From Gordonia bronchialis DSM 43247 (GTDB lineage Bacteria > Actinomycetota > Actinomycetes > Mycobacteriales > Mycobacteriaceae): a DNA stretch of 64,000 bases. Of this stretch, positions 3,823-38,690 are shown piece after piece. The notes below the pieces were generated by a model. It was given only the letters and a program-made list of their open reading frames with translations. It did not search any database and was not told where the DNA came from. A program made the translations under genes and the position numbers. The stretch is from contig NC_013441.1 in assembly GCF_000024785.1 (NCBI RefSeq), forward strand, positions 372,001 through 436,000, read 5' to 3'. How positions within the stretch are numbered: position 1 is the stretch's first letter; each line of letters begins with the position of its first letter.

Positions 3823-5637
3823 GTGACGACCGAAGGCATGGAATCCGAGGTCGAGCTCGACGACGCGCAGCGGCGCGTCGCCGAGGCGCCGGTCGACAAG
3901 CGACTGCTTGTGGTGGCAGGCGCAGGTCAAGGGAAGACCGAAGTCGTTTCGGCACGCCTTGGACACCTGATTGAGGAGGAAGGGCTCTCCGCATCGTCGG
4001 AGCTTTTGGTCTTGAGCTTTTCGCGGGCAGCGGTCCATGCCGTACGCACGCGGCTCTCGGAGCGAGACATTGCCGAGCTCAACGTCAGGACCTTCGATTC
4101 GTTCGCATCGCAGGTACTAATCGACGCCGATGAGGAACCACAGGCGGGATTTGAGGCAAGGATCCGACAAGCCACCGGAGTCCTGGCCGAGCATGCCGCC
4201 GGAACCGAATGGATCGACGATCTCTGCCACGTTGTCATTGATGAGGTCCAGGACGTGGTTGGTGACCGGGCGGCACTGGTGCTCGCGCTGCTGGAGAGGC
4301 TCGACGAGCATGCAGGATTCACCGTTCTCGGAGACCCGCTTCAGGGCATCTATGACTTCGCCCGAACGGAGTCCGCCGACCAGACGACATCGGCGGAGTT
4401 CCTCGCCCGGGTGGCAGGTGACTTCGGTGCGACCGAGGTCGCGCTGTCCAAGAATCACCGAGCCCAAGGGCAGGACTGCGTCCGAATCGCGCAGCTAGGT
4501 CAAGAGTTGCGGCGCACGGACGACGCAACCGAGGCCTTGTCTGTGTTGCGCGCGGTCCGTGAGTCGCTACCGCAGATCAGCCGTGTGGATAGGTGGGAAT
4601 TCCTCGGTGACTACTCGGGGCGGTCTGCGGTGCTATGCCGCACGAACGCTGAGGTCTTGCGCATTTCTCGACAGCTCGTCGACGCCGGAGTTCGCCACGC
4701 TGTGCGCAGGCCCGCGCAGGCCTTTGGGGCGTCAAAGTGGATCGGACGTGCGCTGGGGCCCCTCGTTGGACCTGCCGCCGCGCGATCGGAGGTTGAGACT
4801 CGACTGGCGCAGATACTCGGGGCGGAAGCCTACGAAGCGTGGTATCTCCTCAAAGCGGTGGACGTACGGTCGCGCAGCACGGAGCAGATCGATCTCGGAC
4901 GTGTGAGGCGCGCTGTCGCCGCGGCCAACGTCCCGCTCGCCTTAACCCAGGATGATGTCGTCGGAGTCGTTGTCTCGACCATCCACCGTGCGAAGGGCTT
5001 GGAGTTCGACAACGTCTTTCTCGCTGACTGGCGCGATTCGTTCGCCGGTGAGCGTGATGATTGGGAACAGGTCCGGCTCGAGTATGTGGCGCTCACACGC
5101 GCATCGCAGTCGATCGTCAGGATCGAGACCCCGCGATCGCGGTCCGTGATCTCTGAGAGCGGTTGGCTACCTGGCCGGCACCAAGAGCGTGCCGGGACCA
5201 AAGGAAGGTTGCGAGCGCGCGCCATGGAGATTGGCTACGACGACGGTTACGTCTCGCGGCCAGTGGCGGTCGGAGAGCAGTCCGCCTCCTCGATCCAGGA
5301 GAACCTGGACCGCGCCATCCCCGGCACCGCAGTGAATGCGGTTCTGGACATCACCCGATCGGATCAACTGCGGCCTATCTACGCGCTGACCGTTGGCGGA
5401 TCTCCGATTGGTGTCACCACAGAAGATTTCGGGCGGGAGTTCGCGGCACTCTTCAGGGTCCGCCCTGGGCAGTGGCCCAGCGAGCTCACCGACATGGTGT
5501 TGGTATCGGTGGAAACGACAGCAGGTGATCCTCGTATTGCAGAAGAAGCCGGTGTGGGACCCGGAGGGTTCTGGTTGGTGCCCAGGGTCGCGGGTTTGGC
5601 ACGGCCACTGTGGGATGTCATGGAGAAAGTGGGATGA
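3823..5637 (+). CDS. UvrD/Rep-like superfamily 1 helicase (paralogue 1)
   Basis: A 604-residue protein starting GTG at 3823 behind a GGAGG; ATG at 3838 is an alternative. SF1 motifs are clear: Walker A AGAGQGKTEVV (near 33), DEVQD (near 140), GDPLQGIYDF (near 170), NHRAQ (near 217), TIHRAKGLEF (near 386) and YVALTRA (near 423). The C-terminal 100 residues, ending GPGGFWLVPRVAGLARP, follow the helicase core and are shared with the 603-residue protein at 26534. It should unwind or translocate on DNA using ATP. Its stop overlaps the drmA start as ATGA (5634-5637), so it heads the drm operon. UvrD-like helicases accompany several nuclease defence systems, but this one is not a core DISARM gene. 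Confidence 0.85.
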   Translation: MTTEGMESEVELDDAQRRVAEAPVDKRLLVVAGAGQGKTEVVSARLGHLIEEEGLSASSELLVLSFSRAAVHAVRTRLSERDIAELNVRTFDSFASQVLIDADEEPQAGFEARIRQATGVLAEHAAGTEWIDDLCHVVIDEVQDVVGDRAALVLALLERLDEHAGFTVLGDPLQGIYDFARTESADQTTSAEFLARVAGDFGATEVALSKNHRAQGQDCVRIAQLGQELRRTDDATEALSVLRAVRESLPQISRVDRWEFLGDYSGRSAVLCRTNAEVLRISRQLVDAGVRHAVRRPAQAFGASKWIGRALGPLVGPAAARSEVETRLAQILGAEAYEAWYLLKAVDVRSRSTEQIDLGRVRRAVAAANVPLALTQDDVVGVVVSTIHRAKGLEFDNVFLADWRDSFAGERDDWEQVRLEYVALTRASQSIVRIETPRSRSVISESGWLPGRHQERAGTKGRLRARAMEIGYDDGYVSRPVAVGEQSASSIQENLDRAIPGTAVNAVLDITRSDQLRPIYALTVGGSPIGVTTEDFGREFAALFRVRPGQWPSELTDMVLVSVETTAGDPRIAEEAGVGPGGFWLVPRVAGLARPLWDVMEKVG

Positions 5638-8600
5638 GCGTGGACGACGTTCTGGCAGAGAAGTATCGCTTTCGGGAGGCGATGGTCGACGCCTTGCGGG
5701 GTGACCTTGTCGGGCCTGGCGAGGGCGACGACGAAGTGATCGGCGAGGCGCCGCTGAGTCGATACATCATCGGTGCGCTGTGGCCGCAACCCGCGGACGA
5801 AGAGGACGCCGAGGCCACCGAGCAAGCCGCCGAGGCCGAGCCGACCGGCGCGGAGGCCGATGGTGAGTCCGATGAGGGCAGCCCGGTCGCGGAGTCCCGC
5901 ATGCGATTCCCGTCCTCGGTGGGTCTGACGTTCTCGGTGCGTGCGTCGGCTGAATCAGTGGTTATCGCCCCGAGCGCGGGACGCTACGAGGAGCTGACCG
6001 ACGATGACGAGGCAGCGCTTGGATGGCGACGCCACGAGGTTCCCGCAAAGACTTTCGCGCAGCAACTACAACGACCTGGCGTCTACCGGGATGATGTCGC
6101 GGACGGCCTGCAGCTCTATCGTTACGTGCGCCCAGAGCGGGATGGTGTGGTCACCGTGACCGTCGCCCTCAAGAACACCCATACCGCCATCAAAGGTGAC
6201 CTGCGCGACGGGATCTCGTGGTTCCAGGTGGGCATTGCCGTACAGACCCAACACGCCGACATCGTTGATCGATCGGCCGCCCACAACATCGGTGTCGATC
6301 CCGACCTTGACACCGCGGCCTTGATGTACCGCAACGCTCATACGTTCGCGATCGGACATGGGTGCGCAGCCGAGTGGGATCTGGACGAAGTGCACGACGG
6401 CGCGGTCTCGAAGGTTGCCACCACGTTCATCCCGTCGCACGAGGTCCACCGGGCCAAGCCGGGAGTCGTCACGGGCATCGACTTGCACATGAAGACGTTG
6501 GCCGAGCGGCCCATCGGAGAGATCAGCACCAACCTTCGGGGATTGACAAGCCAATACCGTTCGTGGATAGACACTTTGGAGGGCGAGGTCAGCACCGGGA
6601 CCGCACGCGTCGGCGGCGATCTGCAACCGGTCGCGGAGCGCCATCTTCGAGAGATGCGCAAGGCCGCCGATCGGATCGATGCCGGCATCCGGCTTCTCGA
6701 GGACGACGCCGACGCGCTGCGTGCGTTTCGTCTGGCGAATCGCGCGATGCAACTTCAACGTGCACGCCAGGATTGGGTGCGAGGTGGTGCGCAGGGAACT
6801 GTGGGCGATGGCGCCGACGCACGGTGGCGTCCCTTCCAGATCGCCTATGTACTGCTCAATCTCCCGGGCATCGCCGACCCCGCCCACGACGACCGGGGGA
6901 TCGCCGACCTCCTGTGGTTCCCCACGGGCGGCGGCAAGACCGAGGCCTATCTCGGGCTCGTGGCCTTCGTCATCCTCCTGCGTCGAATCCGCAACTCGGC
7001 GGCATACGGAGTCGCCGTCATCATGCGGTACACACTGCGTCTCCTCACCATCCAGCAATTCGAGCGCGCGTCCATGCTCATGTGCTCCTTGGAGACGGTT
7101 CGCAAGAGCAATCCGGAGCTGGGATCGCGTCCCTTCTCGATCGGACTGTGGGTTGGCGCGGGCGCCACTCCCAACAGCCTCAGAGAGGCGCGAACGTCAC
7201 TCAAGAAGCTCGCTCGTGGTGAGGAACTCCAGGAGAAGAACCCTGTCCAGCTCACCCAATGCCCCTGGTGCGGAACCTTTCTCGATCACGAGAACTACAA
7301 GGTGGCGAGAATGCCGAGCGAGCACCTCAACATCGCGTGCGGTACATCATCGTGCGACTTCCGCAGCGGGTTACCCGTTCACGTCATCGACGAGGATGTC
7401 TACCGCGAGCGGCCGGAATTGATCCTGGGCACCGTCGACAAGTTCGCCATGATGGCGTGGAACGAGAACGTCGGAAAGCTGTTCGCCCGCGACGGCAAGG
7501 GCACCCCGCCGGAGTTGATCATCCAGGACGAGTTGCATTTGATCTCCGGGCCGCTGGGATCGATGGTGGGTTTGTACGAGACGGCCGTCGATGCCGCGTG
7601 CTCGGTCCCGTCGATCCACGACGAGTACAACAGGGCGCGACCAAAGGTGATCGCCTCCACGGCGACGATCCGCCGCGCCGACGAGCAGATCGAAGCGGTA
7701 TTCGCCCGTTCGGCAACCCTTTTCCCGCCGCCGGGCATCGATCCCGATGAGTCATTCTTCGCCGAGCCCTCGGGGAAAGACCAGCTCGGCACCCGAAGGT
7801 ATGTGGGCGTGATGGCCTCCGGGACCAGCCATGCAACCCTGCTCGTCCGCGTCTACGCGGCATTGCTCCAGGCAGCCAAGGACATCGAGGGCGACGACGC
7901 CACTCGCGACCCGTACTGGACCCTGCTGGGCTACTTCAACAGCCTCCGTGTGTTGGGTAGCGCGAATCTCCAGGTCGAGGGAGATGTCAGGGAACGTCTC
8001 GGGGTTGTGTCGAAGCGCAATGGCACAGCGCAGCGTGAGCTCAAAACGGTCAATGAGTTGACCAGTCGTGTTCCTTCTTCGGAGATCCCGGGAAGGTTGA
8101 AGGCATTGGAACGCAAGCTCGGTGGTGGCAACGCGCCCGACGACGTCGTCTTGGCGACCAACATGATCTCCGTCGGTGTGGACATCGACCGACTCGGTCT
8201 GATGACCGTGATGGGTCAGCCGCAGGCCAGCGCCGAGTACATTCAGGCGACGAGCCGCGTGGGTCGTCAGCATCCTGGCCTCGTGGTCACGATCTTCAAC
8301 TCGGCCCGTTCTCGTGATCGTTCGCACTACGAGAGCTTCCGACCCTTTCACCAATCCCTCTACCGTGCAGTCGAAGCGACGAGCGCGACGCCCTTTGCCG
8401 CTCGGGCAAGGGATCGCGGTTTGCACGGCGTTCTCATCGCGATGACGCGGCTACTGGTAGGTGAGTTGGCAGGAAACGATTCGGCTCATCTCGCAGCCGA
8501 CTACTGGGATGACCTGACCAAGGTCGGAGACCTGATATCCGAGCGAGTCGGACGAGTGGCCCCGGACGAGCAGGCCGCAACCGAGGATGAGATCGCCGCG

Positions 8601-8822
8601 CTCCTGAAGGTGTGGGCTGACGAGGGCGAAGCGCGAGAGAACATGAAGTACCAGAACAGCCGGAACCCTCAGGCGGCACTCATGGTGCGCCCGGAGGACG
8701 CGCTCACCAGCGAAGAGATCGAGTATTCGCAGCGTGAGGTTCCGTGGCCGACCCTACAGAGCATGCGCGACGTAGACGCCGAGAGCAGCCTGCACCAGAT
8801 CCCTATGAGGAGGAAGAAGTGA
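5634..8822 (+). CDS. drmA: DISARM helicase DrmA
   Basis: The ATG at 5634 overlaps the preceding stop and gives 1062 residues; an upstream in-frame start lies inside the previous gene and is less likely. An acidic, low-complexity stretch (about residues 45-85) precedes a long N-terminal domain. The helicase core has Walker A FPTGGGKTEAYLGL (near 428), a DELH box (near 632), STATIRRADEQ (near 675), TNMISVGVDID (near 842) and QATSRVGRQHPG (near 872). The FPTGGGKTEAYLG motif and size are those of DrmA, which with DrmB forms the DISARM core that loads on incoming phage DNA. Its stop overlaps the drmB start (GTGA), so the two are translationally coupled. Confidence 0.88.
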   Translation: MSVDDVLAEKYRFREAMVDALRGDLVGPGEGDDEVIGEAPLSRYIIGALWPQPADEEDAEATEQAAEAEPTGAEADGESDEGSPVAESRMRFPSSVGLTFSVRASAESVVIAPSAGRYEELTDDDEAALGWRRHEVPAKTFAQQLQRPGVYRDDVADGLQLYRYVRPERDGVVTVTVALKNTHTAIKGDLRDGISWFQVGIAVQTQHADIVDRSAAHNIGVDPDLDTAALMYRNAHTFAIGHGCAAEWDLDEVHDGAVSKVATTFIPSHEVHRAKPGVVTGIDLHMKTLAERPIGEISTNLRGLTSQYRSWIDTLEGEVSTGTARVGGDLQPVAERHLREMRKAADRIDAGIRLLEDDADALRAFRLANRAMQLQRARQDWVRGGAQGTVGDGADARWRPFQIAYVLLNLPGIADPAHDDRGIADLLWFPTGGGKTEAYLGLVAFVILLRRIRNSAAYGVAVIMRYTLRLLTIQQFERASMLMCSLETVRKSNPELGSRPFSIGLWVGAGATPNSLREARTSLKKLARGEELQEKNPVQLTQCPWCGTFLDHENYKVARMPSEHLNIACGTSSCDFRSGLPVHVIDEDVYRERPELILGTVDKFAMMAWNENVGKLFARDGKGTPPELIIQDELHLISGPLGSMVGLYETAVDAACSVPSIHDEYNRARPKVIASTATIRRADEQIEAVFARSATLFPPPGIDPDESFFAEPSGKDQLGTRRYVGVMASGTSHATLLVRVYAALLQAAKDIEGDDATRDPYWTLLGYFNSLRVLGSANLQVEGDVRERLGVVSKRNGTAQRELKTVNELTSRVPSSEIPGRLKALERKLGGGNAPDDVVLATNMISVGVDIDRLGLMTVMGQPQASAEYIQATSRVGRQHPGLVVTIFNSARSRDRSHYESFRPFHQSLYRAVEATSATPFAARARDRGLHGVLIAMTRLLVGELAGNDSAHLAADYWDDLTKVGDLISERVGRVAPDEQAATEDEIAALLKVWADEGEARENMKYQNSRNPQAALMVRPEDALTSEEIEYSQREVPWPTLQSMRDVDAESSLHQIPMRRKK

Positions 8823-10561
8823 GCATCGCCGAGGCCAAGGCCCGTCGCAGCCAACTGCTCAGTACCTACGGCATCGGTGGTCTGTTTCCCTCGGAGACAT
8901 CGAGTTTCATGATCGTGGGACTGCACGAATGGAACGAGGAACGATCCCCGGTCATCAGTGAGCCCCGGCTTGCTCGATCATTGCGCGTCCAGGAGCTGAA
9001 ATCGCCTCCGGCCGGCGGAAGGAAAGACGTCCCGGTCGTCCGCTTCCCCGAAACCCAGATCTGCCCGGGATGCCGCCGCATCGGCACCACGGCTGCGCTC
9101 GGAGGGGACTGGAACGCATCGAACTGCAAGTGCAAGGAAGGCAGGGCGGGCGCCGCGCTCTCACCGTTTCGTCTGATCATCGCGTGCCCGCGCGGACACA
9201 TCGACGAATTCCCCTTCTACCAATGGCTGCATCGCGACGCGGGGGATCGAGCGGCTGTGAAACACGAGATGCGGATGGTGTCACTCGGACGGACATCATC
9301 ACTGGACGACCTCGTCCTCGAATGCAGCTGTGGCGTCAAGGAACAGACTCTCGAGAAGGCCTCGCAGGCATCCGCGATGAAGGGAATCACCCGCTGCCGG
9401 GGACGTCGTCCGTGGCTCGGTGAGGACCACTCGGAGGAGTGCGGCGAGACCCCACGTGTTCTCCAGCGTGGCGCTTCGAACGTGTGGTTCCCCGCGGTCC
9501 TGTCGGCGATCTCGATTCCGCCCTATTCGGAAGCCTTGGCGAAGTTCGTCGACAAGCATTGGGCGGCGCTCGAAGATCCGGAAGCGGTCAACGATGCGTT
9601 GCTCCGGAACATCGCCAAACAGTCCCGAGGTCGATTCACGGTCGAGCAGATCGTCGCCGAGGTCGAACGCCGCCGCGGCGAGGAGACGGCGGAGGATATC
9701 GACGAGGAGCAGTTGCGTCGGCAGGAGTTCCAGGCGCTCATGGACGGGCGCGAAGAGGACAAGGACGAATCCGACTTCGTCTGTGAGAAGACCGTGATCA
9801 AACGCCAGTTCTCCGGAGACGTTCCCGGCCTGTTCACGGATCTGCGCAAGGTCACGCGATTGCGGGAGGTACGCGCCTTGCGCGGATTCTCTCGCCTCAG
9901 CGGCTCCACCGACGAGGGATCGTTCTGCTCACTGTCACCCGAACCCCTGTACTGGCTGCCCGCCATCGAGGTCATCGGTGAGGGAATCTTCCTGGCACTC
10001 GACCGCGACGAACTGACCGATTGGGCTGCAACACCTTTCGCTCAGGGGCGGCGACGCAAGCTACAGGATGCCGCCGACAGACAAGGGATCGCCTTCAAAC
10101 GTCCACCCACCCAGGTCGACATCGCCAAGGTCGCTCTGCACACGCTCGCACACATCCTCATCGACCAACTCTCCCTCGACGCCGGCTACCCGGCGTCCTC
10201 GTTGCGGGAGCGCCTCTTCGTCGACGACGAGATGGCCGGCATCCTGATCTACACCGCCAGCTCCGATTCCGCGGGCAGCCTCGGCGGTGTGGCCTCCCAA
10301 GCCGACCCGGAGAAGTTCGCCGCGGCGATCAACGAAGGACTTGACAGGCTCTCCTGGTGCTCCTCGGACCCTGTCTGTATCGAGTCGCCCGCCTCGGGAA
10401 CCGACGCTCTCAACATGGCTGCCTGCCACGCGTGTGTGCTGGCCCCGGAGACGTCGTGCGAGCTCAACAACACCCTCCTCGATCGCGCTCTGCTGTTCGG
10501 GACCCACGAACCGGGCGAGGAGAGTGCAGGCCTGTTCAGTGTGCATCTGGGCCGGACATAG
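8819..10561 (+). CDS. drmB: DISARM protein DrmB (DUF1998)
   Basis: The GTG at 8819 overlaps the drmA stop and has a perfect AGGAGG at the right distance, so it is chosen over the longer frame from 8744. The product is 580 residues. Cysteine pairs CPGCRR (near 81) and CKCKEG (near 104), followed by ACPRGHIDEFPFYQWLH (near 122), fit the zinc-binding N-terminal part of DrmB. A helical middle is followed by the DUF1998 region: HTLAHILIDQLS (near 440), LYWLP-type segments, and ACHACVLAPETSCE (near 532). DrmB partners DrmA in every DISARM type. Order and overlap with drmA and spacing to drmD fit a single transcript. Confidence 0.87.
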   Translation: MSIAEAKARRSQLLSTYGIGGLFPSETSSFMIVGLHEWNEERSPVISEPRLARSLRVQELKSPPAGGRKDVPVVRFPETQICPGCRRIGTTAALGGDWNASNCKCKEGRAGAALSPFRLIIACPRGHIDEFPFYQWLHRDAGDRAAVKHEMRMVSLGRTSSLDDLVLECSCGVKEQTLEKASQASAMKGITRCRGRRPWLGEDHSEECGETPRVLQRGASNVWFPAVLSAISIPPYSEALAKFVDKHWAALEDPEAVNDALLRNIAKQSRGRFTVEQIVAEVERRRGEETAEDIDEEQLRRQEFQALMDGREEDKDESDFVCEKTVIKRQFSGDVPGLFTDLRKVTRLREVRALRGFSRLSGSTDEGSFCSLSPEPLYWLPAIEVIGEGIFLALDRDELTDWAATPFAQGRRRKLQDAADRQGIAFKRPPTQVDIAKVALHTLAHILIDQLSLDAGYPASSLRERLFVDDEMAGILIYTASSDSAGSLGGVASQADPEKFAAAINEGLDRLSWCSSDPVCIESPASGTDALNMAACHACVLAPETSCELNNTLLDRALLFGTHEPGEESAGLFSVHLGRT

Positions 10562-10596
10562 GCTGCCCTTGGGGCAGTATCGAGGAGGCAGAGCAC

Positions 10597-13410: not shown

Positions 13411-13414
13411 GAGC

Positions 13415-21100: not shown

Positions 21101-24100
21101 GCTCGGCGTCGGATCCCAACATCCTCGCGTGTACACCGACACTCGAACTAGGCATCGACATCGGAGATCTGAGCACCGTGTCGTTGGCCTCGCTGCCACG
21201 CTCGACTGCGGGCTACCTCCAGCGAGTCGGTCGTGCGGGCCGGTCCACTGGCAACGCATTCGTGTTCGCGGCGGTACCCACCTCACCTCGCGACCTGTAC
21301 TACTTCGCCCAACCCGAGCACCTTCTCGCCGGCGAGGTACTGCCACCCGGCGCGTATCTGGAGGCCACCGAACTCCTGCAACGCCAATACCTGGCATTCT
21401 GCCTCGACCGGATCGCCGGCGGCGCTCTGCGTATCGGGCCCCCGATGCCGGCGAGATTGGCCGACTGCCTCGACAACGGGATGGACGAGGGCCGATGGCT
21501 ACGTGGCGTCGTCGACACCTGCACGGCCGGAGCCGCGAAGCTGTCCGCCGACTTCCTGGGTCTCTTCGGCGAGCACCTCAGCGATCTCGCACGAGAACAG
21601 TTGGGTGACTTCGCATCCGACGGCCTTCGTCTGCAGGTGGCAGCCGTCGCTGCGCGATGGGTGGAGGAGACCGACGAGATCCGGGACCGGATGAGCGCCC
21701 TCTCGGAGGCGATCGCCGTCCTCGACGGTCACGGTCACCTCGACGATGCCCAGCGCGAAGACCGTAAGCGTTGCGCGGGCGAATTCAAGGCCCTCTCGGA
21801 CCAGCTCTACGACCGCGCCACCATCGAGACGTTGACCGGCCTCTCCGGGGTGGGGCTGTTGCCGAACTACAACCTCCTCGATGACTCCACGACCCTCGAC
21901 GTGCACCTCTGGTGGACCGTCGGACGAGAGGGCAACACCTCTCAAGGGGACAAACCCCAGACCGAGGCCCTCGACCTCACCTATGAGCGGGGCAGCTCCA
22001 CCGCATTGACCGAACTCGCGCCCGGTGCCTACTTCTACGCAGGCGGAAAGCGCGTCGAGATCGACGCCATGGACATCGGGCCCGCAACCAAGCCGCACTG
22101 GCGTCGAACCCGACTCTGTCCTGATTGTGGTTGGGGGACAACCGACTCCGCAACCGTACCGTCGTGCCCGCGTTGCCATTCCGGTGCGGTGTCTGATTCG
22201 GGTGCGGTCCACAAGGTCCTCGAACTGCGCAAGGTGTCGGCGGTTCACCGACTCGACGACGTCCTCATCGACGAGGAGGTGGAGGACCGCACGAGGACCT
22301 TCTTCGGCACCATCACCGGTGTCGACATCGAACCCAAGGACATCAATCGGGCGTGGCGGCTCAAGAACACGGCGTTCGGAGCCGAGTATGCGCGGTCGGC
22401 GACGATCAGGACCGTCAACACCGGCTATGGCGATGCGCCCGGCGAACAGATCACCATCGCGGGCGAGGCCCGCACCGCACCGGGTTTCACCACCTGTGAA
22501 CACTGCGGGGTGGTGGCGCCCGGACCCAACTCCACGGACAAGGTCCGCCACCGCGGCTATTGCGTCACCCGTCGAGGTGGGACCGAGAAATGGACGCGCC
22601 TGCTGCTGTCGCACGAACTGCGTACTCAGGCCGTCCGACTCCTGCTGCCCGTCTCGCTGCTGAACTTCGAGACGACCCTCGCGTCGTTCAAGGGCGCTCT
22701 GCTCCTGGGACTGCGCAAGGACTTCGGCGGTGACCCGCAGCACCTGGCGGTCGTGGCCTCCAGCATGAGCGACACCCAAGGGGCCACCCGACGGTTTCTC
22801 GTGCTGCACGACACGGTTCCCGGCGGAACGGGATACCTCGATAGGTTCGGCGACCCACAACGCATGCATCAGATTCTGTCCCTCGCCAGAGACGCACTTG
22901 CACAGTGCCCGTGCAGAACCGAAGAGCAGCAGGCATGCCACCGTTGCCTTTACGGGGTTCTGCCGGCCCGGGACATGGAACACGCATCTCGCGAAGCCGC
23001 ATTACGGTTGATCGAGGAGTTCCTCTCCGAGTGGGATGTCGAGAGTATCGGGACGGTCACCGGAATCGACATCGGCAAGGTGCAACTCAGTGAGCTGGAG
23101 ATCCGATTCCGCGAGTTGCTCAAGTCCCGGTTGGACGCGCGAGAAGGGGCGTCCTACGAGGTCGCGCTCGGAGGCAAGGGCGAGGAACTCGACATCCGGA
23201 TACCGGCCCCAGACGGTCGGACGCGACGCTGGCGGATGCGTCCGCTGGTTCAGATGAGCCACAGCGGCGTGGCGACCGAGCCAGACTTCCTGTTCACCCG
23301 CGTTGACGCCCAGACCGCCGACGTCGCCATTTATCTGGACGGCAAGCAGTTCCATGCGAGCGTCGAGCACAATCGTACCGACGACGATGCGCGCAAGCGT
23401 GACGCGTTGCGCCGCTCCGACATCCGGGTCTGGTCGATCTCATGGGATGACGTCATCGCCGATGAGACGGGCTCGGCCAAGCAGCGTTCCGCCGACATCG
23501 TCCACCAGCACATCAAGAATCTCGTTGCCGAGAACGTGTCCGACAACCGTGTGCGCCACATCTGGGCCAACCCCATCGAGTTCCTGCTCGAATACATCGC
23601 CGACCCCGACGCCACGGTCTGGGGAGAAGGGGCAGAGGCCACCGTCTTCGAATTGGTGACCGGCCCGGCAGAGCATGGCACCGCCCAGCACTTCCGGGTG
23701 GCACCGTCGGAACTGGCCACCGCTCTGATCGACGCGGCCGCCGGGGCGGCGATGACGGATGACGAGACCGGCTCGGTCATGGTCGTTCCCCGCCACGGGC
23801 TCAGCGGTCTCCCACTGATCATCTGCGCAGTGCCGGACTCCTTCCGGACCACGCTCGGGGTGTTCACACTGCTCGACGACCGGGCGAACGTGGTCGGCGG
23901 ACCAGAGCACGACGCACGGTGGCGGGCCTGGCTGCGGTGGTCCAACATCCTGCAGTTCCTCACCCTGCCGCGCTACGGCGACCTCATGCCCCAGCGCATG
24001 GCCGCGATATGGACCACCAGGTCGGTCGACGACTTCCTCGCCGTTCCGGTGCCGTTGGCGATCACCGCAGGCGGTCGCGCCGACATGATCACCCCGCTGT

Positions 24101-24396
24101 CCGGAGAATGGGAGATCGTCCGCGAGTACGCCGATCCCGTCGTCGACGATCTCGTGACCGGTTTGGCCCAGGCCGGTCTCGACGCCCCCGAGGTCGGATT
24201 GGAACTGGGCCCCGACGAGTCGATCTGGCAGGTCGAATTGGGTTGGGAGGAACCGAAGGTGGCCGTGGTGACCGATGTCGACGAGGCTCGCGAGGCATGG
24301 TTGGACGACAACGGTTGGAAGGTGTTCCGCGTGGACACCACGACAGGTGCCGGTGTGGACGACGTCGCCACATGTCTGACGGAAGGGACACGATGA
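18133..24396 (+). CDS. DruE-like DUF1998 helicase with nuclease-like C terminus
   Basis: A 2087-residue superfamily 2 helicase starting in an ATGA overlap with drmMI. It has Walker A TTGTGSGKTESF (near 105), DEFHTYDGAQGTD (near 235), ATSATLG (near 276), ELGIDIGDL (near 1005) and QRVGRAGRSTGN (near 1029). Cysteine pairs occur near 491, 578, 910, 1329 and 1343, suggesting zinc sites. A DUF1998 region (about 1515-1625) contains VPGGTGYLDRFG and a CPCR...CHRCLYG cluster. Size and architecture match DruE, the large helicase of Druantia systems. After that, residues about 1690-1770 contain ATEPDFLF, YLDGKQFHAS and IRVWSISWDDV, a Vsr/DUF559-like nuclease pattern, and a further 300 residues of unknown type follow. 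The stop overlaps the next start. Confidence 0.82.
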   Translation: MTLAQPSLPSLLAAETQESIVEYLTTTFALSDPATQTALRDFLGDTDTGIFRGPYLKIRTPYQPVGDGWVSPLEWMPSGFRPFQHQAEAFARLSTNGKAAQPTIVTTGTGSGKTESFLVPLLDHCKRAAARGERGIKAIILYPMNALVTDQARRLADYLHGDERLAGVSAGVYIGGEGKRRHAGPHALIDHRDTLRDNPPDILLTNYRMLDLLLLRQADTRLWDNATTTLQYLVLDEFHTYDGAQGTDVAMLIRRLGSRLGLEGAAGPLGRVTPVATSATLGGGSQSVELRRFASTVFGSDFGSDSVVGETSLAPIDVVREVDFTLDIPSVAEILAVPEPVADDPASWEPLARTVLAGGQSGAEDFSDPVTIGGALRRHFLTRVVIDVLGAQPRTVADAVLDVAQAGILPWGVHNSTAPREAQTALLRFLALLSIARVRDVSGSLRPLVNVQVQMWVRELSRMLRLVSDTPDFRWWHSGPAEGQRHLPATYCRVCGRSGWMAATTELGDSLSGESPAIWRNSARSGSRAKNRVMLAANPAEDGVRHLDPETLEVHAAPREGTVAVHISIDDEEAAGEVCPSCGARNAIRYMGSSVATLLSVGLTTEFGSRLLPDAEKKTLVFTDSVQDAAHRAAFIEGRAFAFNFRSALYACVEDGNRTLAEVGQALATRATTDELYAITPPDFARRLTTDADWLDHDDGTLRRILATRLVFQSQLEVGLGTRTGRTLELTSSLAVDVDVDLAYFGAAARDVHQNLPQLSVTDLPDDASYRIWLLGLLDHLRTGGGILHPWLTTYITQEGKRWSIWGGSADGMPKFPRGRPAPSFYTTGTAGETDFQSLSPRGESWLTDWTKRCLGVTAGEARAMLMSVVALLAGDNGPLHDRAGEKGARIFGLDPQSVTLHTDELGRLVCPTCHHLQPCSASRIEIWEKAPCPRMRCTGRLEPAEIPAANFYRTMYRGGRIRRIVSAEHTGLLGRDEREEVETRFKVGGSASDPNILACTPTLELGIDIGDLSTVSLASLPRSTAGYLQRVGRAGRSTGNAFVFAAVPTSPRDLYYFAQPEHLLAGEVLPPGAYLEATELLQRQYLAFCLDRIAGGALRIGPPMPARLADCLDNGMDEGRWLRGVVDTCTAGAAKLSADFLGLFGEHLSDLAREQLGDFASDGLRLQVAAVAARWVEETDEIRDRMSALSEAIAVLDGHGHLDDAQREDRKRCAGEFKALSDQLYDRATIETLTGLSGVGLLPNYNLLDDSTTLDVHLWWTVGREGNTSQGDKPQTEALDLTYERGSSTALTELAPGAYFYAGGKRVEIDAMDIGPATKPHWRRTRLCPDCGWGTTDSATVPSCPRCHSGAVSDSGAVHKVLELRKVSAVHRLDDVLIDEEVEDRTRTFFGTITGVDIEPKDINRAWRLKNTAFGAEYARSATIRTVNTGYGDAPGEQITIAGEARTAPGFTTCEHCGVVAPGPNSTDKVRHRGYCVTRRGGTEKWTRLLLSHELRTQAVRLLLPVSLLNFETTLASFKGALLLGLRKDFGGDPQHLAVVASSMSDTQGATRRFLVLHDTVPGGTGYLDRFGDPQRMHQILSLARDALAQCPCRTEEQQACHRCLYGVLPARDMEHASREAALRLIEEFLSEWDVESIGTVTGIDIGKVQLSELEIRFRELLKSRLDAREGASYEVALGGKGEELDIRIPAPDGRTRRWRMRPLVQMSHSGVATEPDFLFTRVDAQTADVAIYLDGKQFHASVEHNRTDDDARKRDALRRSDIRVWSISWDDVIADETGSAKQRSADIVHQHIKNLVAENVSDNRVRHIWANPIEFLLEYIADPDATVWGEGAEATVFELVTGPAEHGTAQHFRVAPSELATALIDAAAGAAMTDDETGSVMVVPRHGLSGLPLIICAVPDSFRTTLGVFTLLDDRANVVGGPEHDARWRAWLRWSNILQFLTLPRYGDLMPQRMAAIWTTRSVDDFLAVPVPLAITAGGRADMITPLSGEWEIVREYADPVVDDLVTGLAQAGLDAPEVGLELGPDESIWQVELGWEEPKVAVVTDVDEAREAWLDDNGWKVFRVDTTTGAGVDDVATCLTEGTR

Positions 24397-26537
24397 CCCG
24401 ATATGTGCAGATGCACGAAATGTTCCAGGGCTCCTACAACAAGCTGGACGGAAGCATCAAGTCCCGGGTCCTGAACTTCATGGTCAAGCTCCAACAGGAC
24501 CCCGACGGAAGCGGCCTGGATTTCAAGCAGCCAAAAGGGGCAGCCGACAAGCACATTCGGACAGCCCGCGTCACCGACAACTACCGTGCCGTACTGATGG
24601 ACCCTGGTGGGCAATCCGCCCTCTACCTCATTGCGGTGATGAAGCACGACGACGCATACGAGTTCGCCGAGAAGGTCACCGTCCAGGTCAATGAGAAGAC
24701 CGGAGCTGCAGAACTTTTCGACAAGGTGGCTTTGAAGACCGCTGTGGACACAGCACCCGTCGCCCAGCCGAGCGAACAACCATTCATGCCATCGACCGTC
24801 CGCACCTCAGACCTCGAACGCTTCGGCGTGGAACCCGGGATCGCCGAGCGCCTCACCGAGGTGACCGGCGAAGAAGCCTTCCTGGCAATCGCGGGCGCGC
24901 TTCCGTCCACGCAGGGCGGAGCCGTCCTCGACCTCGCCTTCGGCAAGAGCCCCGATGACGTGTGGAAGGACTACGCCCTCCAGGAACCCGGGCCCATCGA
25001 CACCGACGACCTGGAGAAGGCGCTCGAGCGCCCCATCTCCCGGCTCGCGTTCACCGCCGCGGCCGGCGATAACGAGGCCGAGCTGCGCGCCGTGCTCGAA
25101 GGAGACTTCGCGAAGTGGCGCGTGTGGCTGCATCCGCTGCAGCGTGATCTGGCCACCCATGATGGGTGGAACGGTCCGTTCCGTGTCACCGGTGGCGCGG
25201 GGACCGGCAAGACCGTCACCGCCCTACATCGTGCCCGCCATCTCGCCCGACGCATCGAGGACAGCGGCAGTGGCGAGAAGGTGCTGCTCACCACCTACAC
25301 CCGAAACCTGGTGCGAGACATCGAAGCCCAGCTGATCATGTTGGCCGGCAAGGAGATCACCGGCCTTGTCGACGTCCTCAATGTCGACGCACTGGCGCGT
25401 AAGGTTCTCACCGCCGGTGACAACGGTCGCGTCCTCGTCAATTCCTCGAGCATCGTGCAGGACAGCGACACCCGGGTTGCGCAGCTGTGGGCCACCGCCG
25501 CCCAGACGGCAACCGGGAAGTGGGAGCCGGGCTTCCTTTCCGACGAATGGGCGCTGGTGGTGCTGGGCAACTCCATCGAGGACGAGGCCGGGTACCTTCG
25601 TGTACCCAGGACGGGCCGCTCACAGCGACTCTCCAGACCCCAGCGTGCCGACGTCTGGAAGGTCGTCGAACACTTCCAACGCCTGATGCGTGCCGAGGGA
25701 CTCATCACCTTCACCGAGCTCGCGGCGCGGGCTGCATCGGCCCTCGCCGCGGACCCGGGACTGCGCGACAGGTTCGGCTATCGGAACGCCGTCATCGACG
25801 AGGCCCAGGATCTGCACCCAGCCCACTGGAAGATGCTGCGCGCTCTCGTCGCGCCGGACACCGACGACCTCTTCATCGTCGGCGACGCACACCAACGTAT
25901 CTACGGCCGCCCGACACCGTTGTCCCGCTACGGAATCGAGACTCGAGGACGATCGCGACGGCTCACGATCAACTATCGCACGAGTCGCGAGATCCTTCGG
26001 TGGACCCTGCTAATGGCTGACCCCGACGTCGACGACCTCGACGTGGACTCCGACACCCTCCAAGGCGCCCGATCGGTGTTCGGGGGACCCGAGCCGGAAA
26101 TGCTCGGTTTCGAGTCTCACGGTGAGGAGAACAGCGGAATCGGGACCCTGATCAAGACCTGGCGGGCAGAGGGGCTGGAACTTCGCGACATCGCGGTGTT
26201 CACCTACGAAAAGCGTCATGTCGATGAGATCTGCGATGCTCTCGAGTCCGAAGGGGTGCCCAGCGCCGCCGTGGGGCCGAACACGGCGGAGGAGAAACTG
26301 GGTGATGCGGTTCGTGTGATGACCATGCACCGCGCCAAGGGTCTCGAATATCGAGGCGTGATCCTCGCGCGGATGGGCGAAAAGGACTTCCCGCCTCCAT
26401 TTCTGCTCCGGAAAGCGGGCGACGAACTCGGCCGCGAGCGGAAGAAACTGCGAAGTGTTCTCTACGTTGCCGGTTCGAGGGCGCGTGAACGGATGGCGAT
26501 CGCCTATTCCGGCAAGCCTGCGAAGATGCTCTCATGA
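24393..26537 (+). CDS. RelE-like domain fused to UvrD-like helicase
   Basis: The ATG at 24393 lies in an ATGA overlap with the previous gene and gives 714 residues; the open frame further upstream is antisense noise inside that gene. Residues about 1-95 resemble a RelE/ParE fold: QMHEMFQGSYNKLDGSIKSR, DFKQPKGAADKHIRTARV, YRAVLMD and LYLIAVMKHDDAYEFAEK. A helical linker follows. The SF1 helicase has GGAGTGKTVTAL (near 267), DEAQDLHPAHW (near 469), VGDAHQRIYG (near 496), NYRTSREI (near 526) and TMHRAKGLEYRG (near 643). RelE-UvrD fusions are known in actinobacteria; the RelE-like part may bind RNA or ribosomes, or may only be a structural module. Its stop overlaps the next start. Confidence 0.82.
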   Translation: MTRYVQMHEMFQGSYNKLDGSIKSRVLNFMVKLQQDPDGSGLDFKQPKGAADKHIRTARVTDNYRAVLMDPGGQSALYLIAVMKHDDAYEFAEKVTVQVNEKTGAAELFDKVALKTAVDTAPVAQPSEQPFMPSTVRTSDLERFGVEPGIAERLTEVTGEEAFLAIAGALPSTQGGAVLDLAFGKSPDDVWKDYALQEPGPIDTDDLEKALERPISRLAFTAAAGDNEAELRAVLEGDFAKWRVWLHPLQRDLATHDGWNGPFRVTGGAGTGKTVTALHRARHLARRIEDSGSGEKVLLTTYTRNLVRDIEAQLIMLAGKEITGLVDVLNVDALARKVLTAGDNGRVLVNSSSIVQDSDTRVAQLWATAAQTATGKWEPGFLSDEWALVVLGNSIEDEAGYLRVPRTGRSQRLSRPQRADVWKVVEHFQRLMRAEGLITFTELAARAASALAADPGLRDRFGYRNAVIDEAQDLHPAHWKMLRALVAPDTDDLFIVGDAHQRIYGRPTPLSRYGIETRGRSRRLTINYRTSREILRWTLLMADPDVDDLDVDSDTLQGARSVFGGPEPEMLGFESHGEENSGIGTLIKTWRAEGLELRDIAVFTYEKRHVDEICDALESEGVPSAAVGPNTAEEKLGDAVRVMTMHRAKGLEYRGVILARMGEKDFPPPFLLRKAGDELGRERKKLRSVLYVAGSRARERMAIAYSGKPAKMLS

Positions 26538-28345
26538 CCGAGACGACAGCCGCTGGGGACGCTGTCGCGTTCGAACTCGACGAATCGCAACGTGCTGTCG
26601 CCGAGGCGCCCGCAGACGCGCGACTCCTGGTGATCGCGGGAGCCGGGCAGGGCAAGACCGAGGTGGTGGCATCTCGGATCGAGTATCTCGTAGAAGATGA
26701 GGGGCTTTCGGCGTCCACCGAGATCATGGCACTGAGCTTCTCGCGTGCTGCGGTACATGCAGTGCGAACGCGACTTGACGTGCGAGACATCGCGCGTACA
26801 GACGTGAGGACGTTTGATTCGCTGGCGTCGTATCTGTTGTCGCAGAACGGTATCGAGCCTGCGGGGGACTTCAACGAGAGGGTTCGTGCCGCCACCAGAC
26901 TGCTGACGACTTCGGCTGAAGTCGACGGGGTGGAGGACATCGCGCACATCATTCTCGACGAGGTCCAGGACCTCGTTGGTGACCGTGCAGAGATGGTATT
27001 GGCGTTGCTGTCGCGCCTGGACGAGTCTGCGGGGTTTACAGCCCTGGGTGATCCACTGCAGGCCCTCTATGATTTCACCCTCGACGACTCTCGGAGCAAA
27101 CTCACATCGAGCGAGTTCATCGACGCCCTCACGAAATCCCACGGTGGCACCGAACTAAGCCTCGACCGCAACTATCGCGCCCGCGGCGAATTCCCGCGCG
27201 GCGTGATCGAACTGGGCAACAAGATGAGAGACGAGCAGAGGGGCGAAGCAGCTCAGATCATCACGGAGTTCGAGAGCACACTGCCACACTCGGGCGAAAT
27301 CCGGGATTGGCACTTTCTCGATGACGCCTCCGCTGGTCGGACGGCGGTGCTGTGCGCAACGAACGGCGAGGTCCTGAGGGTGTCCAACTTCCTGTCTGAG
27401 CAGGGCATTGATCATGTCGTCCGACGACCCGCGCAGGACTTTGGCGCCGCCAAATGGATCGCGGAGCTGTTCGAGGGGGTCGAGGGACCGGAGTTGGCGA
27501 GGTCTGACGTCGAGTCGGCGATCGAGAGCAAACTCGCGGCTCGACTTCGGGACGAGGCGTGGTACCTGCTCAAGGGTGCCGAAGGGCGCTCGCGCACCAT
27601 GAATCAGCTCAACCTCCCTCGCCTGCGCAGCTTGATATCGACCCACGCGATGCCGCTGACCCTCACTGAACCCGACCAAGCGCATGTGATCGTCTCCACG
27701 ATCCACCGAGCCAAAGGACTTGAATTCGAACGAGCGTACTTCGTGCACCCGAATAGCCCGATGAACGATCAGAACGATTGGCCGGCCATCCGTCAGAGAT
27801 ACGTTGCGCTGAGCCGGGCGCGCGACATGGTCGCGGTGATCGACATCCCCACCGAGTGGGTCTGGTTCGACAAACGGAATGGGCGATCGCGGGAACGCAA
27901 GAAGGGCAAGTCCGGGAAGCACTACACTCTTGCGGTGGAGCTACGTGGCAATGATGTGATGGACTCGCGGCCACTGCAGGGCGACCCGAGAAGGGCGCAC
28001 GAGATCCAGAGGAATCTCGCCGAGGTTTCGCCGGGCCAGGAGATCTTCGGGGTGTTCGATCCCACCCAGTCCACAGCGGACAAACCGATATTCTGCCTGA
28101 GCACCTCGAAGGGCGCGGAACTCGGCTTCACCGATAAGTGGTTCGGGAGAGCACTTGCCTACGATTTCGGCTGGCGACGCGAGTTCCGTGATGGTTGGGA
28201 TGGAGCCGTTGTCGAGGGAGTGCGCTTGGTGTCAGTTGAGACGGTTGCAGGAGATCCGCGAGTGACAGAGGCTGCCGGTCTGGGTCCCTCGGGATTCTGG
28301 TTGGTACCGCGGGTATTCGGGTTGGTTGCGCCGAAACCGTCGTGA
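26534..28345 (+). CDS. UvrD/Rep-like superfamily 1 helicase (paralogue 2)
   Basis: A 603-residue protein starting in an ATGA overlap. SF1 motifs are AGAGQGKTEVV (near 34), DEVQDLVGD (near 141), GDPLQALYDF (near 172), NYRARG (near 216) and TIHRAKGLEF (near 388), with YVALSRARDM near 423. It aligns over its whole length with the protein at 3823-5637, including LSFSRAAVHAVRTRL near residue 68 and the shared tail GPSGFWLVPRVFGL. The two therefore arose by duplication and bracket the drm/druE-like genes. It is the last gene of the + strand operon and converges on the DUF262 gene with three bases between stop codons. Confidence 0.85.
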   Translation: MTETTAAGDAVAFELDESQRAVAEAPADARLLVIAGAGQGKTEVVASRIEYLVEDEGLSASTEIMALSFSRAAVHAVRTRLDVRDIARTDVRTFDSLASYLLSQNGIEPAGDFNERVRAATRLLTTSAEVDGVEDIAHIILDEVQDLVGDRAEMVLALLSRLDESAGFTALGDPLQALYDFTLDDSRSKLTSSEFIDALTKSHGGTELSLDRNYRARGEFPRGVIELGNKMRDEQRGEAAQIITEFESTLPHSGEIRDWHFLDDASAGRTAVLCATNGEVLRVSNFLSEQGIDHVVRRPAQDFGAAKWIAELFEGVEGPELARSDVESAIESKLAARLRDEAWYLLKGAEGRSRTMNQLNLPRLRSLISTHAMPLTLTEPDQAHVIVSTIHRAKGLEFERAYFVHPNSPMNDQNDWPAIRQRYVALSRARDMVAVIDIPTEWVWFDKRNGRSRERKKGKSGKHYTLAVELRGNDVMDSRPLQGDPRRAHEIQRNLAEVSPGQEIFGVFDPTQSTADKPIFCLSTSKGAELGFTDKWFGRALAYDFGWRREFRDGWDGAVVEGVRLVSVETVAGDPRVTEAAGLGPSGFWLVPRVFGLVAPKPS

Positions 28346-30706: not shown

Positions 30707-30786
30707 GCGGTGAACCTCGTCGGTGTCGATTGATCTAATACTTGAAGATCAACGTAGCGGACGGCGACGACAGGGGTAACGGGACG
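30707..30786. promoter_or_regulatory. Divergent intergenic region with inverted repeat
   Basis: This 80-base gap separates the DUF262 gene and the helicase gene, which are transcribed away from each other. It contains the inverted repeat TTGATCT (30730-30736) and AGATCAA (30746-30752) with a 9-base spacer. The region is A/T-rich for this genome, including TCTAATACTTG. It must hold both promoters, and the inverted repeat is a plausible operator. A TTG at 30742 within it is an alternative start for the helicase, but the ATG at 30787 is preferred. Confidence 0.45.
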
Positions 30787-33132: not shown

Positions 33133-33320
33133 TGTCAGCGGTCATGTAATTCCCCAGGTTGGTGGGGTTGTCCGTCACGTAATTCCTCACCTGTCCGTCA
33201 CGTAATTCCCCACCCTGGGGCGTGTCGGGCGGGGTTGGGGTGCTGCTACAGGTTCGCTCCTTGCAGGGCCCCTTCCCGGGCCCCTGGAAGGGGCCTGAGG
33301 TGGCACGGAGGACGTTGACG

Positions 33321-34877: not shown

Positions 34878-34929
34878 ACCTCACACCCAATCCCATTAAC
34901 TACCAGCTTATTCCACTAAGGACGTTCTG

Positions 34930-35691
34930 ATGACCATTCATGATCCCAGCCTGCGAGCCGCGTTGAAAACGTTGAAGTTGACCGGCATGCTCGACACCCT
35001 CGACGCCCGGCTGGCCCAAACCCGCGCCGGCGAACTGGGTCACCTGGAGTTCCTGCAGGTGTTGTGCGAAGACGAGATCGCCCGCCGTGAGTCCGCCGCC
35101 CTGGCGCGGCGCGTGCGCCGGGCCCGCTTCGAACAATCAGCAACCTTCGACGACTTCGACTTCACCGCCAACCCGAAACTGCCCGCCGCGATGCTGCGTG
35201 ACCTCGCCGCCCTGCGCTGGCTCGACGCCGGCGAATCAGTCATCCTCTACGGACCCGTCGGAGTCGGCAAAACCCATGTGGCACAAGCACTCGGCCACCA
35301 AGTCGCGTTACGCGGACACGACATCCGATTCGTCAAATGCGCCCGCATGCTCGCCGACCTCGCCGGCGGCCACGCCGATCGCACCATCGGGCAACGCATG
35401 CGCGAATACACCCGCCCCGCCGTCCTGATCATCGACGACTTCGCCATGCGCGAACACACCACCACCGGCTCCGACGACCTCTACGACCTCGTCTCCGACC
35501 GCGCCATCGCAGCCAAACCCGTCATCCTCACCAGCAACCGCGCACCCAAAGACTGGTACCCCCTGTTCCCCAACCCCGTCGTCGCCGAATCACTACTCGA
35601 CCGACTCATCAACACCAGCCACCAGATCCTCATGGACGGCCCGTCCTACCGACCACGCAAACGCCCCGGACGAACACCGAAAACCACCTAA
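34930..35691 (+). CDS. istB: IS21 helper ATPase IstB
   Basis: A 253-residue AAA+ ATPase of the DnaC/IstB type. The Walker A motif is YGPVGVGKTHVAQALGH and the Walker B motif is LIIDDFAMREH. LTSNRAPKDWYPLFPNPV is the sensor region typical of IstB. It selects target DNA and activates IstA. It lies 52 bases after istA in the same element and appears intact. Confidence 0.93.
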   Translation: MTIHDPSLRAALKTLKLTGMLDTLDARLAQTRAGELGHLEFLQVLCEDEIARRESAALARRVRRARFEQSATFDDFDFTANPKLPAAMLRDLAALRWLDAGESVILYGPVGVGKTHVAQALGHQVALRGHDIRFVKCARMLADLAGGHADRTIGQRMREYTRPAVLIIDDFAMREHTTTGSDDLYDLVSDRAIAAKPVILTSNRAPKDWYPLFPNPVVAESLLDRLINTSHQILMDGPSYRPRKRPGRTPKTT

Positions 35692-35780
35692 CCCACAACC
35701 CCAGCTACCCTCAACCCAGCACACCCGAACATGGGGAAATCCGTGACGGACACACCTGGGGAATTACGTGACCGTCGACA

Positions 35781-38660: not shown

Positions 38661-38690
38661 TGAATCGCCCCGGGTTTGCTGGAGGCTCGG

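What the first reader, a model, noticed from the sequence alone, without database searches (positions are those of the whole stretch)
3823..28345. DISARM class 1 core without DrmC, joined to a DruE-like helicase in one overlapping operon
Seen: eight + strand genes in a row, six of whose junctions are 4-base stop/start overlaps (5634, 8819, 18133, 24393, 26534) or very short gaps (10561-10597 and 13410-13415). Established: DrmA, DrmB, DrmD and DrmMI define class 1 DISARM, which normally also has DrmC; DruE is the large helicase of Druantia. Inference: a DruE-type protein and two UvrD helicases have replaced DrmC, producing a chimeric system that marks self DNA by adenine methylation and clears unmarked DNA with several helicases.
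Basis: partly seen in the sequence, partly recalled or inferred. Interest (0 to 1): 0.88.

Follow-up and report, generated by a model that had tools for sequence, protein, structure and literature searches.

The report
ARMADA II joined to DISARM-like helicases
Eight genes in a probable Gordonia bacterium join two kinds of phage-defence machinery in one operon: a complete ARMADA type II system and the helicase pair of DISARM, the latter taken from a conserved gene module for which I found no description.

Summary
The eight-gene + strand operon (3823-28345) is real, with five (not six) 4-base overlaps. Genes 4-7 are not DrmD, DrmMI and a Druantia DruE but a complete ARMADA type II set (ArmA-ArmB-ArmC-ArmD) in that system's order: 30-36% identity over 98-100% of their length to an E. 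coli ARMADA II locus, with all eight residues mutated in E. coli conserved. DISARM DrmD and DrmMI fall in separate clades. Genes 1-3 are a UvrD helicase, DrmA and DrmB; gene 8 is a duplicate of gene 1. No DrmC was found; ArmC ends in a Vsr-like region (weak match). In 23 of 23 other loci with this DrmA type a related UvrD gene precedes DrmA, and in 22 of 23 a sacsin-like/SF2-helicase gene stands in front: a conserved DISARM-like module, undescribed in the literature I could search. On an ArmA tree, linkage of this module to ARMADA II changes six times. In Gordonia and Tsukamurella the two are fused, the sacsin-helicase is gone and the UvrD gene duplicated. Function is inferred: ArmB marks self DNA; DrmAB and ArmC attack unmarked DNA ends. 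New variant of a known kind.

The parts
3823..5637 (+). UvrDa, SF1A (UvrD/GajB-like) helicase, 604 aa, Walker A (GAGQGKTE) and DEVQD present; ends in a beta-rich C-terminal region (about 440-604) of unknown role
   Evidence: Pfam UvrD-helicase; AlphaFold model mean pLDDT 86; a relative sits directly before DrmA in 23 of 23 other loci
5634..8822 (+). DrmA, DISARM-type YprA-family helicase, 1062 aa
   Evidence: NCBIfam DISARM_DrmAS 1034 bits, cut-off 950; aligns to solved DrmA 7s9v from its residue 134 onward
5787..5903 (+). acidic low-complexity loop of DrmA (residues about 52-90), at the place of the Serratia trigger loop
   Evidence: alignment to 7s9v; trigger loop 176-232 from PMC9142583 (passages)
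8819..10561 (+). DrmB, DUF1998/MZB partner of DrmA, 580 aa, GTG start
   Evidence: NCBIfam DrmB_fam 465 bits, cut-off 240; Pfam MZB
10597..13410 (+). ArmA, SNF2/BrxHII-like helicase, 937 aa
   Evidence: 36% over 99% to E. coli ArmA; K137 and D237 conserved; groups with ARMADA, not DrmD
13415..18136 (+). ArmB, PglX/Eco57I-like adenine methyltransferase, 1573 aa
   Evidence: 34% over 99% to E. coli ArmB; SAM-motif G565 and NPPW N934 conserved; Pfam Eco57I; best PADLOC profile is a type IIG REase-MTase, 1100 bits
18133..24396 (+). ArmC, YprA-family helicase with DUF1998, 2087 aa
   Evidence: 30% over 98% to E. coli ArmC; K113 and D236 conserved; Pfam DEAD, Helicase_C, MZB
23308..23475 (+). Vsr/REase-like (PD-(D/E)XK) core in the C-terminal part of ArmC
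   Evidence: MTES_1575 in 9 of 22 C-termini scanned (best 6.9e-6; window 0.0015, below cut-off); invariant D, DG and H columns in 22 rows
24393..26537 (+). ArmD, UvrD/GajB-like helicase with N-terminal RelE-like region, 714 aa
   Evidence: 33% over 100% to E. coli ArmD; K273 and D469 conserved
24393..24707 (+). RelE-like N-terminal region of ArmD (approximate bounds)
   Evidence: collinear with E. coli ArmD; RelE assignment from PMC12458937; no Pfam match here
26534..28345 (+). UvrDb, 603 aa, duplicate of UvrDa at the 3' end
   Evidence: 47% to UvrDa; the two form sister clades inside the module UvrD tree, joint support 98/97

Best explanation
The operon is a superoperon of two defence units. 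Unit 1 is a complete ARMADA type II system (ArmA SNF2 motor, ArmB methyltransferase, ArmC helicase with Vsr-like end, ArmD UvrD with RelE-like region). Unit 2 is UvrD-DrmA-DrmB, the reduced form of a conserved actinobacterial DISARM-like module whose full form is [sacsin-like/SF2 helicase]-UvrD-DrmA-DrmB. Shown: gene identities, order, conservation of tested residues, purifying selection, recurrent linkage. Inferred: ArmB methylates host DNA as the self mark; unmarked phage DNA with exposed ends or gaps is loaded by DrmAB (whose Serratia relative prefers 5' overhangs) and by ArmC (whose relative DruE loads on 3' single strands); ArmA and the UvrD motors translocate or remodel; the Vsr-like domain of ArmC cuts, in the place of DrmC.
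For: ArmA-D match E. coli ARMADA II full length and keep 8 of 8 residues mutated there. ArmA and ArmB group with ARMADA, not DISARM. DrmA and DrmB pass NCBIfam cut-offs. Module DrmA is one clade apart from class 1 (SH-aLRT 100 on 28 module rows; 100/100 on 15). Same eight-gene order in a Tsukamurella plasmid and in G397; DrmAB directly before ArmABCD also in Mycolicibacterium peregrinum L007. Short or overlapping junctions throughout and selection on all eight. In the class sample, without G000, module genomes carry ArmA more often: 7 of 15 against 34 of 378 (p 2.8e-4); linked within 25 kb 4 of 15 against 0 of 19 for other DrmA genomes (p 0.03) (not corrected for kinship; draft contigs can hide linkage). 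The linkage label changes 6 times on the ArmA tree, 5 forced.
Against: No experiment. ARMADA II works alone in E. coli (PMC12458937), and most loci found with the ArmC profile show no module: module-type DrmAB in 4 of 80 (many loci too short to tell). 11 of 22 module genomes have no ArmC match, and in 5 of the 11 that do it is not within 25 kb. Loss of the sacsin-like helicase could mean that unit 2 is impaired. Multiple changes on the tree can also be losses of an old linkage. The nuclease match of the window's ArmC alone is below Pfam's cut-off. End preferences are carried over from distant relatives.
Confidence: 0.6

Rival explanations
1. Two independent systems stacked in one transcript: ARMADA II works alone, UvrD-DrmAB works alone, and linkage reflects defence-island clustering and shared regulation, without joint mechanism.
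For: In 16 of 22 module genomes ARMADA II is not within 25 kb of DrmA, and most loci found with the ArmC profile lack the module (4 of 80 have it). Partner exchange: L140, L141 and L142 have close DrmA but distant ArmA lineages. ARMADA II is sufficient in E. coli (PMC12458937).
Against: Overlapping or very short junctions through both units in Gordonia and Tsukamurella; repeated linkage, not seen for other DrmA types (0 of 19); ArmD kept beside DrmB without ArmC in the genomes of L138 and L139.
Confidence: 0.35
2. Decaying remnant: UvrD-DrmAB lost its first gene and is on the way out; only ARMADA II acts.
For: The sacsin-like helicase is missing from the window genome (only a short match elsewhere) though present in 22 of 23 relatives.
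Against: UvrDa, DrmA and DrmB are intact in the window, G397 and Tsukamurella; dN/dS between window and G397 is 0.09-0.18 for these three, and the UvrD gene was duplicated and kept.
Confidence: 0.08
3. One reading: class 1 DISARM core without DrmC, with a Druantia DruE added.
For: PADLOC DrmD, DrmMI and DruE profiles do hit.
Against: Those profiles cover shared superfamilies; full-length matches, curated cut-offs and trees all give ARMADA.
Confidence: 0.02

Closest known systems
ARMADA type II (Bell et al. 2025, PMC12458937; E. coli locus L209)
   Same: ArmA-ArmB-ArmC-ArmD in the same order, full-length homology, all eight residues mutated in E. coli conserved
   Different: Preceded by UvrD-DrmA-DrmB and followed by a second UvrD in one operon; the parts of the paper that I read do not mention this
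DISARM class 1 (e.g. Rhodococcus ruber plasmid L211: DrmD, MTase, DrmA, DUF1998 protein, DrmC)
   Same: DrmA and DrmB; an SNF2 helicase and a methyltransferase in the same operon
   Different: SNF2 and methyltransferase group with ARMADA; no DrmC found; DrmA lacks the N-terminal ~130 residues of the Serratia protein
Druantia type III (DruE + DruH; E. coli locus L209)
   Same: YprA-family giant helicase with DUF1998
   Different: 117 bits only and 46% coverage to DruE; no DruH in the proteins scanned; Vsr-like instead of PLD C-terminus
[sacsin-like/SF2 helicase]-UvrD-DrmA-DrmB module (found here; unnamed)
   Same: UvrD, DrmA and DrmB of the window are its members
   Different: The window lacks the first gene and has ARMADA II and a duplicated UvrD behind it

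Membership tests
ARMADA type II | Gene order BrxHII-like helicase, PglX-like methyltransferase, YprA helicase, RelE-UvrD | tested here: met
ARMADA type II | Full-length homology of all four proteins to the validated E. coli type | tested here: met
   36/34/30/33% identity, 98-100% coverage, to an E. coli locus of the same kind (L209, strain F138), not to NCTC 12900 itself
ARMADA type II | Residues whose mutation lowered or abolished E. coli activity | tested here: met
   8 of 8 positions conserved (positions from PMC12458937)
ARMADA type II | ArmC C-terminal Vsr-type nuclease | tested here: inconclusive
   MTES_1575 in 9 of 22 homologues, window E 0.0015 below cut-off; core residues invariant; no PDB sequence match; no fold obtained
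ARMADA type II | RelE-like domain at ArmD N-terminus | tested here: inconclusive
   collinear with E. coli ArmD, no Pfam RelE match
ARMADA type II | Anti-phage activity | not testable with these tools
   no experiment
DISARM class 1 | DrmA and DrmB | tested here: met
   NCBIfam cut-offs passed
DISARM class 1 | DrmD | tested here: not met
   312 bits, cut-off 610; outside the DrmD clade
DISARM class 1 | DrmMI | tested here: not met
   no NCBIfam DrmMI match; 25-30% coverage; outside the DrmMI clade
DISARM class 1 | DrmC (PLD nuclease) | tested here: not met
   no PLDc_2 (PF13091) match in the window; DrmC models run only on the eight proteins and some neighbours; DrmC is often missing and dispensable in DISARM (PMC9142583, passages)
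DISARM class 1 | EVE-like N-terminal domain of DrmA | tested here: not met
   alignment to 7s9v begins at its residue 134; domain assignment from PMC12458937
Druantia | DruE | tested here: not met
   117 bits to an E. coli DruE against 703 to ArmC
Druantia | DruH or other Dru partners | tested here: inconclusive
   none seen among the eight operon proteins in PADLOC scans (several lists cut at the best 25 families); the C5 methyltransferase at 36284-37405 has DruM2-type hits
Sacsin-helicase-UvrD-DrmA-DrmB module | UvrD directly before DrmA, DrmA in the module clade | tested here: met
Sacsin-helicase-UvrD-DrmA-DrmB module | Sacsin-like/SF2 helicase as first gene | tested here: not met
   absent from the window genome; so the window is a reduced derivative

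The most novel reading that the evidence does not exclude
One integrated immune machine with two YprA-family motors of complementary end preference (DrmAB on 5' single-strand ends, ArmC on 3' ends), one methylation mark (ArmB) and one fused nuclease (ArmC), formed by repeated recruitment of ARMADA II behind an undescribed sacsin-helicase-UvrD-DrmAB system; in the Gordonia/Tsukamurella lineage ARMADA took over so fully that the sacsin-like helicase became dispensable and was lost.
Probability: 0.25. Interest if true: 0.82.

Novelty: new variant of a known kind. Interest (0 to 1): 0.62.

Why it matters
ARMADA was proposed as the 'missing link' between DISARM and Druantia on phylogenetic grounds (PMC12458937). 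Here the DISARM core and ARMADA II sit in one operon, in Gordonia and Tsukamurella (and contiguously in Mycolicibacterium peregrinum), so the question whether these YprA motors cooperate becomes directly testable by single deletions. The comparison also brings out a conserved DISARM-like module (sacsin-like/SF2 helicase, UvrD, DrmA, DrmB) in which I saw no DrmC, DrmD or DrmMI; its DrmA type is found in 16 of 394 sampled genomes of the window's class, and the papers I could search do not describe it. It warns that PADLOC profile names alone (DrmD, DrmMI, DruE) can mislabel ARMADA genes.

Tried and rejected
Rejected: DISARM class 1 and Druantia membership (see tests). Rejected: UvrD genes as a stand-in for DrmC; a UvrD gene precedes DrmA in all 23 module loci fetched, so it is an old part. 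Rejected: Gabija; the UvrD proteins hit many GajB profiles, but these are general SF1 matches, and no GajA is among the families listed. Rejected: a phage-borne module; 18 DrmA relatives in viral contigs, none above 44% identity. Inconclusive: 10 ORFs near modules gave no recognised DNA methyltransferase: five had no Pfam match, the others were a protein-isoaspartate methyltransferase, a kinase-FtsK protein, a WD40-STAND protein, a metallo-beta-lactamase-fold protein and a NO VEIN-domain protein; the last two could be nucleases (recalled, not tested), so a partner nuclease of the module is not excluded. No fold of the ArmC C-terminus and no fold search of any model was obtained; PDB sequence search with the ArmC C-terminus found nothing.

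Limits and dropped rows: the HMMs were built mostly from the loci they were then counted in (first labels came from blastp with window proteins). The SNF2 and methyltransferase trees carry a warning that long branches meet. The methyltransferase set has four of five DISARM loci, the Nostoc one (L213) being annotated in pieces around a transposase. Trees used part of what was found: DrmA 51 rows, drawn from 102 loci with hits of which many are duplicate fetches, then 26 rows (120); ArmD 38 loci of 95 (80); UvrD 17 of 27 rows (118). ArmA took one hit per locus of at least 780 residues and left out L006. Linked loci there are enriched because I chose several by DrmA. Contig-length sharing between ArmC and UvrD hits, 20 of 45, is only a hint. 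Supplementary tables of PMC12458937 could not be read.
Full report
What is there. The window lies in contig C1 of a genome of 5,290,012 bases in 2 contigs (G000:C1:372001-436000). No organism is named; the nearest protein to ArmC (98%) is from an uncultured Gordonia, so the host is probably Gordonia. Eight + strand genes run from 3823 to 28345. Five junctions are 4-base overlaps and two are gaps of 35 and 4 bases.

Genes 4-7 are ARMADA type II. The preprint that defines ARMADA (PMC12458937; I read parts 1-4 of 8 of the text, from the abstract to the start of Methods, the figure legends and searched passages, not the supplement) gives type II as ArmA (BrxHII-like helicase), ArmB (PglX-like methyltransferase), ArmC (YprA-like helicase with C-terminal Vsr-type nuclease) and, almost always, ArmD (GajB-like UvrD with N-terminal RelE-like domain), in strict order. 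Against the four proteins of such an E. coli locus (L209) the window proteins give 36, 34, 30 and 33% identity over 98-100% of their length. The eight positions mutated in E. coli (ArmA K136, D236; ArmB G605, N971; ArmC K110, D234; ArmD K266, D454) carry the same residue in the window. DISARM DrmD from five class 1 loci aligns over only 50-59%, DrmMI from four over 25-30%, and DruE of an E. coli Druantia III gives 117 bits against 703 for ArmC. Trees put the five DrmD and the four DrmMI in one clade each, with the window outside, though both carry a long-branch warning. The NCBIfam DrmD cut-off is missed and no DrmMI model matches.

Genes 1-3 and 8. DrmA and DrmB pass NCBIfam cut-offs, and the only solved chain matched by DrmA is Serratia DrmA 7s9v. 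The window DrmA begins where 7s9v has residue 134, so the N-terminal domain that PMC12458937 calls EVE-like is missing; an acidic stretch (residues about 52-90) sits at the place of the autoinhibitory trigger loop (176-232; PMC9142583, passages). In samples of 397 genomes of the same order and 394 of the same class there is a gap in DrmA scores: one group at 820 bits and above, all others at about 640 or less. I fetched all 23 loci of the high group outside the window. In 23 of 23 a UvrD gene related to UvrDa stands directly before DrmA; in 22 of 23 a further gene stands before it, about 1,550-1,660 residues where complete (12 loci), with an N-terminal sacsin/TmtA-like region and a C-terminal SF2 helicase. 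The exception is L141; the frame in L142 ends early. DrmA of these loci plus the window's lineage and Arthrobacter forms one clade (SH-aLRT 100, 28 rows; 100/100, 15 rows) apart from class 1 DISARM. I saw no DrmC, DrmD or DrmMI in it. The window genome has no copy of the first gene, only a short match at 1.29 Mb. UvrDa and UvrDb of the window, G397 and Tsukamurella are sister clades within the module UvrD tree (98/97): a duplication in this lineage.

How the two units are joined. The same eight-gene order is found in a Tsukamurella plasmid (its ArmC is annotated as two reading frames) and in G397. DrmAB-ArmABCD also runs on without a break in Mycolicibacterium peregrinum (L007, locus cut upstream). 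G262 and G178 have [sacsin-helicase]-UvrD-DrmA-DrmB followed by ArmA-B-C-D, G178 with about 0.6 kb between DrmB and ArmA; G547 has the same order through ArmC, ArmD not examined. G328 and G067 have gaps of about 3 and 11 kb. Arthrobacter/Pseudarthrobacter loci (L030, L036, L072) have both units converging. Of 22 module genomes (without G000 and G397), 11 have ArmC and 6 have it within 25 kb of DrmA. In the class sample, without G000, ArmA occurs in 7 of 15 module genomes and 34 of 378 others (p 2.8e-4), but in 3 of 19 genomes with other DrmA types (p 0.32); linked within 25 kb: 4 of 15 against 0 of 19 (p 0.03) (no correction for kinship, and draft contigs can hide linkage). On an ArmA FastTree of 48 rows the label 'linked' (12 rows) needs 6 changes, 5 forced by supported branches; old linkage with losses is also possible. 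L140, L141 and L142 have close DrmA (89/90) but their ArmA come from three separate parts of the ARMADA tree: the partner has been exchanged. Two loci, L138 and L139, keep an ArmD of the same lineage as ARMADA-bearing relatives behind DrmB, with no ArmC match in the genome, so ArmD may serve DrmAB too. Against this: of 80 loci fetched with the ArmC profile, 4 carry module-type DrmAB and one (L025) another DrmA, though many loci are too short to tell.

Selection. Between the window and G397 all eight genes are free of stops in the aligned parts, with dN 0.11-0.28 and dS 1.07-1.83, including the three genes of the reduced module. That argues against decay.

Mechanism, step by step. Shown: motifs of SF2, SF1 and SNF2 motors and of an adenine methyltransferase (NPPW). 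Supported by homology: YprA motors act on ssDNA-containing ends; Serratia DrmAB is activated by 5' overhangs and less by methylated DNA (PMC9142583, passages including the abstract); a Druantia III DruE loads on 3' ssDNA and cuts long DNA (PMC13192584, passages); E. coli ARMADA II needs all four genes and is non-abortive (PMC12458937); a 2026 review lists ARMADA with systems that treat unmodified DNA as foreign by unknown mechanisms (PMC12904381, passages). Inferred: ArmB supplies the self mark; DrmAB and ArmC cover both end polarities of unmarked DNA; the Vsr-like region of ArmC cuts. The nuclease assignment for this protein is weak alone (MTES_1575 E 0.0015, below cut-off; 9 of 22 members match, best 6.9e-6). 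The two extra UvrD proteins have a C-terminal region, beta-rich in the UvrDa model (mean pLDDT 86), of unknown role.

Novelty. ARMADA II is known; DrmAB is known; their union in one operon and the four-gene sacsin-helicase-UvrD-DrmA-DrmB module are not mentioned in what I read. Searches. [quoted passage not shown] PMC11090510 (passages) mentions a DISARM-like system associated with McrBC; I could not tell whether it is related. Class composition of DISARM beyond the passages and annotated records seen is recalled from Ofir et al. 2018, not read here.

Verdict. Real, conserved, partly misread: an ARMADA II plus DISARM-core superoperon, a new variant of known kinds.

Noticed in passing
L185:2505-7184 (also L186-L195, L197 and others): A protein of about 1,550-1,660 residues with sacsin/TmtA-like N-terminus and SF2 helicase C-terminus heads a UvrD-DrmA-DrmB module in 22 of 23 loci; related proteins of about 1,110 residues carry the sacsin domain without the helicase domains in Pfam.
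   Followed up: partly
28349-30706 (-) and 30742-33318 (+): A DUF262/GmrSD protein with RAMA domain and a divergent SF2 (ResIII) helicase follow the operon and are conserved beside it in G397 (71/61%) and the Tsukamurella plasmid (62/47%).
   Followed up: partly
33222-35691: An IS21-type element (transposase and IstB) lies at the 3' end of the ResIII helicase gene; 35731-36267 beyond it resembles a downstream stretch of the Tsukamurella helicase gene.
   Followed up: partly
36284-37405 (-): C5-cytosine DNA methyltransferase, 52% to one upstream of the Tsukamurella operon; ISL3 and IS3-type transposases follow at 37934-39659.
   Followed up: no
313-1737: SIR2-like protein with ThsA (Thoeris)-type PADLOC matches, upstream of the operon.
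   Followed up: no
L138:10935-13145 and L139:11602-13812: ArmD-type helicase behind DrmB with no ArmC match in the genome; also L191 and L193 with a more distant ArmD (G741 of L191 has an ArmC on another contig).
   Followed up: partly
L212:5436-14955: Azospirillum plasmid with UvrD (about 930 aa)-DrmA-DrmB-NERD helicase: a UvrD-DrmAB arrangement outside Actinomycetota.
   Followed up: no
L151, L152, L155, L156: A second DrmA type with a sacsin-helicase relative upstream; in L155 the gene directly before DrmA is a NERD-nuclease SF1 helicase instead of UvrD, giving a parallel four-gene arrangement.
   Followed up: partly
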